Assembly: GCA_029863605.1 (NCBI GenBank)
Contig: JAOTVB010000020.1
Coordinates: 1-64,000, forward strand
Direction: 5' to 3'
DNA length: 64,000 bases
Source: Myxococcales bacterium
GTDB taxonomy: Bacteria > Myxococcota_A > Polyangia > Polyangiales > Houyiibacteriaceae
Made by a program: the position numbers and the translations under genes. The notes beneath the pieces are model-generated. The model was not told the DNA's origin. It was given only the letters and a program-made list of their open reading frames with translations, and ran no database searches. Shown here in pieces: positions 38,808 to 45,639 of the stretch; the first letter of the stretch is position 1, and every line of letters begins with the position of its first letter.

Positions 38808-39878
38808 ATGTCATCCGGCGCCGCACCCAAGACGACTCGACCCGGCTCACTCAAGTCGCGTCATCTGCCGCTGGCATCGGCCGAGTATCAACTCGCCGAG
38901 CTCGGCCGGCTGCCGATGGACAAGACCTTCGACGAGGCGCTCACCCCCGAAGGCCTTTGGCCGCTTCGACCCACCTCGATCGAGATCCTTCAAATCAACG
39001 TCGGTAAGCTTTGCAACCAAACCTGCCGGCATTGTCACGTCGATGCGGGACCCGATCGAACCGAAGTGATGTCGCGCGAGACTGCCGAGCATTGCATCGA
39101 CGTCCTTCGACGTTTCGCCATTCCGACGGTCGACATCACGGGCGGCGCCCCCGAGCTCAACCCGAGCTTTCGATGGCTCGTAAAGCAATGCGCCTCCCTC
39201 GGCCGCCACGTCATGGACCGGTGCAACCTCACCATTCTCGAGACCGGCGCGCATCGCGATTTGCCCGAGTTTTTCGCTGAGCACGGGGTCGAGCTCATCT
39301 GCTCGCTCCCGCACTACCAACCGACCTGCACCGACATCCAGCGCGGCGACGGCGTCTTCGACAAGAGCATCCGGGCTCTGCATCGTTTGAACGCTCTCGG
39401 CTACGGGGAGGGCAAGTCGGGGCTTCGTTTGGTGCTGGTGACGAATCCGGTCGGCGCAATCCTTCCGGCAGCGCAGGCATGTCTCGAGGTCGAGTGGAAG
39501 CGCGAGCTCAAGGAGCGCTACGACGTGTCGTTCGATGCCCTCTACACCATCACCAACATGCCGATCAGCCGATACCTTGAGTGGCTTCTAAAGACCGGGA
39601 ATCTCGAGGGTTACATGCGAAAGCTCGTCGAGTCGTTCAATCCGCAAGCGGCACACGGCGTCATGTGCAGGAGCACGATCTCGGTCGGCTGGGACGGGCG
39701 CCTCTTCGACTGCGACTTCAATCAAATGCTCGACGTCCCGGTCACTGACGGGGCCCCGCGCCACATCCGCGACTTCGACCTGTTGGGGCTCGAGGCTCGC
39801 ACGATCGTGACCGACCGACACTGCTTCGGCTGCACCGCAGGCGCCGGCTCGAGCTGCGGCGGTGTAACGGCCACCTAG
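38808..39878 (+). CDS. arsS: Arsenosugar biosynthesis radical SAM protein ArsS-like
   Basis: A 356-aa radical S-adenosylmethionine enzyme. The cluster motif CNQTCRHCH (CxxxCxxC) lies near residue 69; TVDITGGAPELNP follows. The C-terminal region has the DUF3641 hallmarks FDCDFNQML and RHCFGCTAGAGSSCGG. This spelling is that of ArsS, which attaches a 5'-deoxyadenosyl group to dimethylarsenical in arsenosugar synthesis. No ArsM methyltransferase is adjacent, and many ArsS-named homologues have unproven roles. The N-terminal 60 residues (STEYQLAELGRLPM-like) are also typical. Confidence 0.85.
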   Translation: MSSGAAPKTTRPGSLKSRHLPLASAEYQLAELGRLPMDKTFDEALTPEGLWPLRPTSIEILQINVGKLCNQTCRHCHVDAGPDRTEVMSRETAEHCIDVLRRFAIPTVDITGGAPELNPSFRWLVKQCASLGRHVMDRCNLTILETGAHRDLPEFFAEHGVELICSLPHYQPTCTDIQRGDGVFDKSIRALHRLNALGYGEGKSGLRLVLVTNPVGAILPAAQACLEVEWKRELKERYDVSFDALYTITNMPISRYLEWLLKTGNLEGYMRKLVESFNPQAAHGVMCRSTISVGWDGRLFDCDFNQMLDVPVTDGAPRHIRDFDLLGLEARTIVTDRHCFGCTAGAGSSCGGVTAT

Positions 39879-42847: not shown

Positions 42848-43261
42848 GTGCCCGCTCCCAAGATCCGTATCCTCGTCGCGAAGCCCGGGCTCGACGGGCA
42901 CGATCGTGGGGCGAAGGTGGTGGCCCGAGCGCTCCGTGACGCGGGCTTTGAGGTGGTCTACACGGGGCTTCATCAGACCCCCGATATGATCGCCGTTGCG
43001 GCAGTCCAAGAAGACGTCGATGCCGTCGGCCTCTCGATCATGTCCGGCGCCCACAATACGCTTTTTCCCGCGGTTCTCGACGCGCTCAAGGCACGCGGTG
43101 GCGAAGACATCATCGTGTTCGGCGGCGGGATCGTTCCCGAGGCAGACGCGGATGCACTTCGAGCGCGAGGCGTCGGCGCCATCTTCACGCCGGGCGCGCC
43201 ACTCGAAGAGATCATCGCATGGGTGCGTACGAATGTCGCGCCCAGGTCGCTCGGGTCATGA
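42848..43261 (+). CDS. Cobalamin-binding protein, methylmalonyl-CoA mutase C-terminal type
   Basis: A 137-aa B12-binding domain. The base-off signature DGHDRGAK (DxHxxG) is present, followed by [11 protein letters not shown] and [15 protein letters not shown]. This is the size and spelling of the small subunit of an acyl-CoA mutase (or the C-terminal domain of methylmalonyl-CoA mutase). No large subunit gene is in the window, so it must partner in trans or serve another role. GTG start; the next gene overlaps by 4 bp. Confidence 0.9.
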
Positions 43262-44022
43262 AGCAGCTTGCGCTCGCCCTCGCCCTCATCACGCTTGTCG
43301 CGTGCACGAGGGAAGGGCAGCGAGAACCGCTGCACGAACCCACATCCCCCTTCGAGGTCCTCGGGAGCGAATTCGGAGTGAGCATGGCGAGAGTGCACCT
43401 CGGCCCTTCACGAACCTTTCGGTTCGAGGCGGGCCCTTGCCAGGAGGTCTTGGTATTCGTCGAGAAGGGCACCGCGCGCGTGGGGCTAACGTGGCTCGAT
43501 ACGGGGAGGGCCGCGCGCTTTCACGCGCCAGCGCTGCTCCAAGGGATGTCCAATGATGGTACCGTGATCTTCGCAGTGGCGGCGCTCTCGAAGGAGGCCG
43601 CGATCGAGCAGATCGACTGGGCACGTGTGCCAAAGAACCCGTCGTGTCCCCCACGATCCAACGAAGTGGTCCTTTCCGACCCGGAGCGAAGCGGACCCTT
43701 CGTCCATGCCGGGGGTCGCCTTTCGGTCATGATCTATCTCGACGGCGTTCGGGACGGACCGCCTGTGGCAAGCCTTGGAACACTCACCGCCGATTCGACG
43801 CTTGCCGTGCCAGAACACCTTCACGAGCGCTCCGCTGAAGTGCTTTGGATTCAGGACGGCTCGGGGACGATGCGCGTCGGCGACCAGACGCGCGCGATCC
43901 GGCCGGGCACATTCGTCCGGGTACCGCCACAAACCCTTCACGGCTTCGTTCCAGACGGCACCAGGCCCCTATTGGCATACCAGGTCTATACGCCCTCAGG
44001 ACCCGAACAGCGTTTTCGCTAA
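43258..44022 (+). CDS. Cupin lipoprotein
   Basis: A 254-aa lipoprotein from the ATG at 43258, which overlaps the previous stop. The lipobox is LVACT. Two beta-barrel halves are seen; the C-terminal half is a clear cupin ([33 protein letters not shown]) with two His and one Glu as metal ligands. The N-terminal half lost the His ligands. Probably attached to the outer or inner membrane. Function not predictable; sugar or small-ligand binding is usual for cupins. Confidence 0.8.
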
Positions 44023-44035
44023 CTCCGCCCGCGGC

Positions 44036-45553
44036 TCATGGTTCAACGGGCGGAAGCCCATGGCCGGGTACGATCAGCGTTTTCTTGTACGTCTCATAGT
44101 CGAACTGGTCGCTGTGCTCTTCGTTGTGGCAGGGCAGACACGTCGACTCCGGCGCGTCCTCGACTATGTCGATCTCGGGATTCTTGGTATGCGCCGCGCC
44201 GGGTCCATGGCAGCTCTCACATCCGACGTTCACCAGCGCGCCCTTCAAGTTGTGTGTCACCGTGGAGCCGCCGGGCTGATCGTACCCCGTCACGTGACAA
44301 CCGACACAGTCGAGGTTGAACTCTTTGTTGCGCGTTTGCAGCGTGAGGTACGCGTGGCCGTGCGGATGAGACTGCCACCATACGTAGGCGGGGTTATGGC
44401 ATGTGCCGCAGGCTTCGCTTCCGACGTAGGCGATGTCGTCGGGCCCGAGCGGGCGAGGAGCTAGGTCTGCGAACGCTTCACGGTTGGCTTGATTGACTGC
44501 CTTGTCGTGCTCCCTCATCAGCTTGGTCACCTCTTGGTCCGTGGGGGCTTCCTTGGGCAGCTCCACCCACCTTGCCGTGAAGGAATTGCCGCGAGGTGAG
44601 CGCGGAGGCGCATCCATCGCTTCCCGTTGGGTCTTCAGCGCTGCGAGTCGATCGGATTGCGCACGAAGGTCTGCAGGATCGACGTCCTTCGATCTTTCCC
44701 ATTCCAGAATTTTTTCGGACAAGTCTGCGATCTGTGCCTCGAGTTGCCGGATTCTTTCTTTTTTCGACCACTCACTCAGGTCGGCGAAGGCTTCATCGGT
44801 TTTGCGATGCAGGTCGACGACGGTGAGTCCTTGGCCCTGCCGCCCGGCATTCAAGACCCACGCTTCGCCGGCTCGGTGGGGTGGGAGGGGCGCGTCTTGG
44901 TCGAGGCCACCGTGCACGACGAAATCGACGCCGTCGATCGCCCCGATCCGATTCGCGTCGCGCCGTGAGCCGTGCACCAGCGCAATCGTCAAGTCGGTTT
45001 CAGCCTGCGCAGAGCCAACCGCCGCCATCACCGCGTCGCGCTTGGCGCCCGGGCGCACACCCACGACAGCAATGCGGAGCTCACCAGCTTTAATCCGCAC
45101 GACCTCGGCAGCGCCCTTCATCGCCAGCCACGGGAACCTCGACGCGGTGTGCAAACGTGCGAGTTCTTCTTGTGGCTGCGCCCGATCGCGCCGACCGGGC
45201 AGCGCCGCATCGATCTCCAAGTGATCGAGGATCCCGAGGAGCGTACTGGCGTTTCGGTTCGCTTGGTCTACCCGCGCCGGCTCGAGAGCGTCGGTATCGA
45301 AGAACAGGTCGCCAGCCATGAGCACTACCAGCGGCACGGAGCCATCCCGCAGGGCCCGGATCTGGGCAGCGAGGCGATCGATGCCACCGAGCGGGCGGCT
45401 CGTGCAGCCGCAGGGCTCGAGATACCCCTTCAGGTCCGTCACGACGGCCAGGCGCAGCGTCGGGCTAGGCTTCCCATCCGGAGCCTCCTTCGACTGGCCA
45501 CGATTGCAGCCGGCGGTAGCGCCAAGGGCCAGAAGGACGAGCAAGCATCGCAT
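44036..45553 (-). CDS. Tetrahaem cytochrome lipoprotein with a degenerate phosphoesterase-like domain
   Basis: A 505-aa exported lipoprotein from ATG 45553 (lipobox TAGC). Residues about 35-270 resemble 5'-nucleotidase/calcineurin-like phosphoesterases (VVTDLKGYLEP, VLMAGDLFF, VDFVVHGG), yet the metal-binding His residues of that fold (D-x-H, GNH, GHTH) are not there. A coiled linker follows (about 285-340). The C-terminal part has four CxxCH haem sites: CGTCH, CVGCH, CESCH and CLPCH, as in multihaem cytochrome c554-like proteins. Likely a periplasmic electron-transfer protein. The track start at 45625 is over-extended. Confidence 0.82.
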   Translation of the reverse strand: MRCLLVLLALGATAGCNRGQSKEAPDGKPSPTLRLAVVTDLKGYLEPCGCTSRPLGGIDRLAAQIRALRDGSVPLVVLMAGDLFFDTDALEPARVDQANRNASTLLGILDHLEIDAALPGRRDRAQPQEELARLHTASRFPWLAMKGAAEVVRIKAGELRIAVVGVRPGAKRDAVMAAVGSAQAETDLTIALVHGSRRDANRIGAIDGVDFVVHGGLDQDAPLPPHRAGEAWVLNAGRQGQGLTVVDLHRKTDEAFADLSEWSKKERIRQLEAQIADLSEKILEWERSKDVDPADLRAQSDRLAALKTQREAMDAPPRSPRGNSFTARWVELPKEAPTDQEVTKLMREHDKAVNQANREAFADLAPRPLGPDDIAYVGSEACGTCHNPAYVWWQSHPHGHAYLTLQTRNKEFNLDCVGCHVTGYDQPGGSTVTHNLKGALVNVGCESCHGPGAAHTKNPEIDIVEDAPESTCLPCHNEEHSDQFDYETYKKTLIVPGHGLPPVEP

Positions 45554-45610: not shown

Positions 45611-45639
45611 TTGACGCACGGGCATACGCTGACTACTTT
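45611..45639 (+). promoter_or_regulatory. Putative rpsP promoter
   Basis: TTGACG and TACTTT have a 17-base spacer, 45 bases ahead of the rpsP ATG, whose ribosome site is GAGGA. The match is good for a ribosomal-protein promoter. Confidence 0.6.

What the first reader, a model, noticed from the sequence alone, without database searches (positions are those of the whole stretch)
44036..45553. Phosphoesterase-like domain without metal ligands fused to four haem sites
The N-terminal fold recalls 5'-nucleotidase-type phosphoesterases, yet DxH, GNH and GHxH positions are replaced (DLK, GRR, GGLDQ). Its coupling to a tetrahaem tail implies it has become a binding or structural domain in electron transfer.
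Basis: partly seen in the sequence, partly recalled or inferred. Interest (0 to 1): 0.5.

Follow-up and report, generated by a model that had tools for sequence, protein, structure and literature searches.

The report
Dead-phosphatase fold with heme-wired cysteine pair
A membrane-anchored myxobacterial protein has lost the metal site of a phosphate-cutting enzyme, carries an invariant cysteine pair next to where that site was, and is joined to four haems; relatives use selenocysteine at one of these positions, so it is probably an electron-transfer enzyme of a known but uncharacterised family.

Summary
The N-terminal domain is homologous to 5'-nucleotidases (family profile against CD73, E 3e-14), its catalytic and metal residues are replaced (DLK, GRR, GGLDQ), and it is fused to four CxxCH haem sites. 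The loss is family-wide: of 58 homologues from the phylum none keeps all seven ligands and 57 keep at most three. The protein is a Cys-type relative of the UshA-like selenoprotein family (NCBIfam NF041198, full-length E 2e-73, below the curated cut-off). 'Binding or structural domain' is therefore unlikely. Best reading: a lipid-anchored thiol/selenol oxidoreductase on a retired phosphoesterase scaffold, exchanging electrons with a tetrahaem c554-like tail. Haemless paralogues keep the Cys/Sec motif, so the haems are an optional module. Substrate and electron direction are unknown. The family is known from bioinformatic surveys; I found no functional study.

The parts
44036..45553 (-). whole gene, 505 aa from Met25 (longest ORF starts at 45625)
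   Evidence: start chosen for the lipoprotein signal
45506..45553 (-). lipoprotein signal peptide ending at lipobox Cys40
   Evidence: sequence LGATAGC; Cys40 conserved 58/58
44801..45463 (-). 5'-nucleotidase/SoxB-like domain (residues 55-275), phosphoesterase site lost
45428..45436 (-). DLK (D64-K66), position of the DxH metal ligands
   Evidence: hhalign map; His kept in 1/36 Cys-type and 2/22 Sec-type
45404..45415 (-). PCGC (71-74), proposed redox site; Cys74 is Sec (TGA) in 22 homologues
45188..45196 (-). GRR (144-146), position of GNH (metal Asn and catalytic His)
   Evidence: Asn in 1/58, catalytic His in 0/58
44897..44911 (-). GGLDQ (239-243), position of GHxH
44591..44776 (-). predicted helical (coiled-coil-like) hairpin linker, residues 284-345, in place of the nucleotidase C-terminal domain
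   Evidence: two long helices in the model; no PF02872 match
44051..44443 (-). tetrahaem c554-like domain (residues 395-525)
   Evidence: PF13435 52 bits over cut-off 20.8; PDB 1bvb cytochrome c554 E 1.4e-9
44396..44410 (-). haem 1 CGTCH
   Evidence: sequence; 58/58 conserved
44294..44308 (-). haem 2 CVGCH
   Evidence: sequence; 58/58 conserved
44207..44221 (-). haem 3 CESCH
   Evidence: sequence; 58/58 conserved
44126..44140 (-). haem 4 CLPCH
   Evidence: sequence; 58/58 conserved

Best explanation
A periplasm-facing, lipid-anchored oxidoreductase. An ancestral 5'-nucleotidase-like domain lost its di-metal site and gained a Cys-Gly-Cys (in relatives Cys-Gly-Sec) motif in the loop that follows the old DxH ligands. 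The Cys72/Cys74 pair is proposed to cycle between dithiol and disulfide (Cys/Sec: selenenylsulfide), exchanging electrons with a substrate on one side and with the C-terminal tetrahaem c554-like relay on the other, which links it to the quinol/cytochrome pool. Shown: fold homology, ligand loss, invariance of the motif, Cys/Sec interchange at position 74, and the fused four-haem tail. Inferred: that the pair is redox active, that electrons pass between it and the haems, and the periplasmic location. Unknown: the substrate and the direction; reduction of an oxidised thiol, sulfur or peroxide species is a guess.
For: Full-length match to NF041198 UshA_like_PCGU, E 2e-73. PCG(C/U) invariant in 58/58, with TGA exactly at position 74 in 22. 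Sec-type genes keep GGT for Gly81 in 21/22, against 3/36 in Cys-type genes and 15% of all Gly codons in the Sec-type genes, as expected for a SECIS loop. SelA is found in 21 of the 22 Sec-type genomes and SelB over cut-off in the remaining one; the window's genome (100% complete) lacks SelA and has no SelB over cut-off. No homologue keeps all seven ligands; catalytic His 0/58. Haem CxxCH sites 58/58, with three further invariant His (422, 479, 522) as candidate distal ligands. Published tables list this family with a CxU motif (PMC13188914; PMC2398784).
Against: Haemless paralogues carry the same CGC/CGU motif, so haem input is not obligatory for the domain. One of them reads PSGU, so the first Cys is not always needed. 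No substrate gene is conserved beside it: the neighbours look like housekeeping genes, rpsP with its usual companions on the Cys side and TsaD/RsmA-like genes on the Sec side (names other than rpsP are by eye). Cys/Sec could instead bind a metal. The distance from the Cys pair to the haems could not be measured; the models are of modest confidence.
Confidence: 0.55

Rival explanations
1. The Cys72/Cys74 (Cys/Sec) motif, perhaps with D64 and D106, binds a new metal or metalloid (Cu, Zn, Hg, As or similar), and the haems reduce or sense the bound metal.
For: CxC motifs commonly ligate soft metals; D64 is kept in 34/36 Cys-type members. The Cys-type arsenosugar gene ArsS lies about 4 kb away in the window, and a homologous radical-SAM gene lies near it in seven loci.
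Against: D64 is N, H, S or R in 21/22 Sec-type members and D106 varies in both groups, so no fixed further ligand set remains. Sec used as a metal ligand is rare.
Confidence: 0.2
2. One reading: the domain is only a binding or structural module on a tetrahaem electron carrier.
For: Phosphoesterase residues are lost and most of the domain varies, apart from the PCGC/GG loop.
Against: Selenocysteine at position 74 in 22 homologues and absolute conservation of PCG(C/U) point to chemistry at that site; haemless forms keep the motif.
Confidence: 0.12
3. It still acts as a hydrolase on phosphate or sulfur esters, SoxB-like, with an altered one- or two-metal site.
For: Same fold as SoxB and CD73; D64, D106 and H218 persist in this copy; some Sec-type members keep the equivalents of D84, H217 and H252.
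Against: Asn and catalytic His of GNH are lost in 57/58 and 58/58; GHxH is lost in all Cys-type members; H218 is H only in this copy among 36.
Confidence: 0.06

Closest known systems
UshA-like (seleno)protein, NCBIfam NF041198 (UshA_like_PCGU)
   Same: Full-length match (profile 29-519 of 519, E 2e-73); PCG(C/U) motif; degenerate 5'-nucleotidase domain; tetrahaem tail
   Different: Scores 247.7 bits against a curated 275; Cys instead of Sec; separate, well-supported Cys clade; extra invariant His504 (Q in 18/22 Sec members)
UshA-like (seleno)protein family 2, NF049981
   Same: Weak match over the N-domain (E 6e-6); CxxU motif listed in the literature
   Different: Model of 262 positions only; far below its cut-off
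5'-nucleotidases (CD73, UshA, YfkN)
   Same: Fold and length of the N-domain
   Different: Metal and catalytic residues replaced; no PF02872 C-terminal domain
SoxB thiosulfohydrolase
   Same: Fold; weak sequence match over residues 194-275
   Different: Metal ligand set not kept; SoxB has no haems (established knowledge)
Cytochrome c554 (Nitrosomonas; PF13435)
   Same: Tail residues 405-474 over the Pfam cut-off; PDB 1bvb E 1.4e-9
   Different: Here it is a C-terminal module of a larger lipoprotein

Membership tests
NF041198 UshA-like (seleno)protein | Full-length profile match | tested here: met
   E 2e-73, profile 29-519/519
NF041198 UshA-like (seleno)protein | Score over curated cut-off (275 bits) | tested here: not met
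   247.7 bits; so it is described as a Cys-type relative, not as a formal member
NF041198 UshA-like (seleno)protein | PCG(U/C) motif | tested here: met
   P71-C72-G73-C74, aligned with Sec in 22 homologues
5'-nucleotidase (metallophosphoesterase) | Fold | tested here: met
5'-nucleotidase (metallophosphoesterase) | Seven metal ligands and GNH catalytic His | tested here: not met
   3 of 7 ligand letters; catalytic His is Arg146
5'-nucleotidase (metallophosphoesterase) | C-terminal PF02872 domain | tested here: not met
   absent in Pfam scan
Cytochrome c554 family PF13435 | Pfam gathering score | tested here: met
   52 bits against 20.8
Selenoprotein | In-frame TGA decoded as Sec | tested here: not met
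   the window gene has TGC at position 74; the genome lacks SelA
Redox-active Cys-pair protein | Reversible disulfide and electron exchange with haems | not testable with these tools
   needs purified protein

The most novel reading that the evidence does not exclude
A distinct class of extracytoplasmic oxidoreductase in which a retired metallophosphoesterase fold hosts a CxC/CxSec redox centre directly wired to a fused tetrahaem cytochrome, with the haem module gained or lost between paralogues.
Probability: 0.45. Interest if true: 0.65.

Novelty: new member of a known kind. Interest (0 to 1): 0.4.

Why it matters
The UshA-like family is tabulated in selenoprotein surveys, but I found no functional study of it, and the 2008 marine survey set it apart from families with clear Cys-based redox motifs. 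Family-wide loss of the phosphoesterase site, Cys/Sec interchange at one invariant position and a fused tetrahaem tail together give a concrete, testable redox hypothesis. The Cys-type myxobacterial form could be expressed without selenocysteine machinery.

Tried and rejected
A genome-collection scan with the single protein found only one near relative. A two-sequence AlphaFold model of the whole protein was poor (pLDDT 49.5); the N-domain alone was better (pLDDT 69, pTM 0.73). Loci from the genome search were not given to structure prediction because its stated rules do not list them. Neighbourhood analysis gave no functional partner (a first ORF caller was misled by antisense ORFs). RNA folding of 45 nt after the TGA showed no more stability than shuffles (mean z -0.15), and the alifold consensus was weak; only the codon constraint supports SECIS. 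A scan of haemless paralogues against NCBIfam failed on coordinates and was not repeated. Paper searches for the fusion found nothing beyond the three surveys; one query was malformed.

Full report
What is there. Window 44036-45553 (minus strand) encodes a 505-residue lipoprotein; the longest ORF starts at 45625. From N to C: signal peptide with lipobox Cys40, a domain of about 220 residues, a predicted helical hairpin, and four CxxCH sites in a c554-like tail (PF13435, 52 bits against cut-off 20.8; PDB 1bvb cytochrome c554, E 1.4e-9).

Fold. Pfam's metallophosphoesterase model does not match this single sequence, but a profile of 27 homologous N-domains matches CD73, snake-venom nucleotidase, YfkN and SoxB in the PDB (best E 3e-14). 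The N-domain model (pLDDT 69, pTM 0.73) retrieves the same proteins by structure (best E 7e-9, TM to query about 0.5, large rmsd), and so does the poorer full-length model. hhalign against nine canonical 5'-nucleotidases of the same phylum gives 99.75% probability, E 2e-27.

Ligands. The hhalign register places D64/K66 on DxH, D106 on the GD Asp, R145/R146 on the Asn and His of GNH, H218 on the later His, and G240/D242 on the two His of GHxH (the roles of these residues in E. coli UshA are from established knowledge). In 58 homologues (36 Cys-type, 22 Sec-type) the DxH His is kept in 3, the GNH Asn in 1, the catalytic His in 0, and the first GHxH His in 0 Cys-type and 8 Sec-type. Of the 58, 57 keep at most three of the seven ligands, one keeps five, none keeps all seven.

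PCGC (71-74) lies in the loop between DxH and the GG motif. Cys72 and Cys/Sec74 are invariant in 58/58. In 22 homologues position 74 is TGA, always at exactly this codon. The sampling matters: these are the best-scoring NF041198 matches from 58 relatives and 284 phylum genomes, not an exhaustive set. Supporting selenocysteine: SelA in 21 of the 22 genomes and SelB over cut-off in the remaining one, and Gly81 codon GGT in 21/22 Sec-type against 3/36 Cys-type genes, while GGT makes up 15% of Gly codons in the Sec-type genes. Folding energy alone gave no SECIS signal. The window's genome lacks SelA, consistent with its Cys. A maximum-likelihood tree separates Sec-type and Cys-type with full support, so the sample needs only one change; the root, and hence the direction, is not known.

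Known family. NCBIfam NF041198 'UshA-like (seleno)protein' matches over its full length at E 2e-73 but at 247.7 bits, under the curated 275. Surveys list it as a CxU selenoprotein family (PMC13188914; PMC9312934; PMC2398784). I found no functional study.

Modularity. Nine paralogous genes that match only the N-domain and helical part have no CxxCH; they carry PCGU, DCGC or in one case PSGU, followed by the LGGL motif. The Cys/Sec loop is thus the constant feature and the haem tail is optional. In the haem-bearing form three further His (422, 479, 522) are invariant, and His504 is invariant only in the Cys-type; bis-His ligation of three or four haems is an inference.

Mechanism. The most likely reading is a lipid-anchored extracytoplasmic oxidoreductase whose Cys72/Cys74 pair does thiol chemistry and exchanges electrons with the fused tetrahaem relay. 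Shown: homology, ligand loss, motif invariance, Cys/Sec interchange, domain fusion. Inferred: redox activity, electron path, location. Unknown: substrate and direction. Gene neighbours do not help.

Verdict. The interpretation as a binding or structural domain is only partly supported. The protein is a Cys-type relative of a known, functionally uncharacterised selenoprotein family.

Noticed in passing
window 38808-39878 (+): Radical SAM gene matching arsenosugar biosynthesis (seleno)protein ArsS, TIGR04167, 434.6 bits over cut-off 300; it ends GSSCGGVTAT. The literature lists TIGR04167 with Sec-containing members, so the window holds Cys forms of two selenoprotein families about 4 kb apart; homologues of the ArsS gene lie near the UshA-like gene in seven loci.
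   Followed up: partly
window 42848-43261 (+): Stand-alone B12-binding methylmalonyl-CoA mutase C-terminal domain (TIGR00640), with no mutase large subunit noticed among the adjacent ORFs.
   Followed up: no
window 43219-44022 (+): Protein of 267 aa, convergent with the finding, that looks cupin-like by eye; no NCBIfam match.
   Followed up: no
L103-L111: Haemless paralogues of the N-domain with DCGC, PCGU or PSGU motifs in the same phylum; the PSGU form (L111) lacks the first Cys but keeps the TGA.
   Followed up: partly
L075-L082: Around Sec-type genes, recurring neighbours include TsaD-like, RsmA-like and PP2C-like genes on one side and ABC-transporter-like genes on the other (names by eye).
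   Followed up: no
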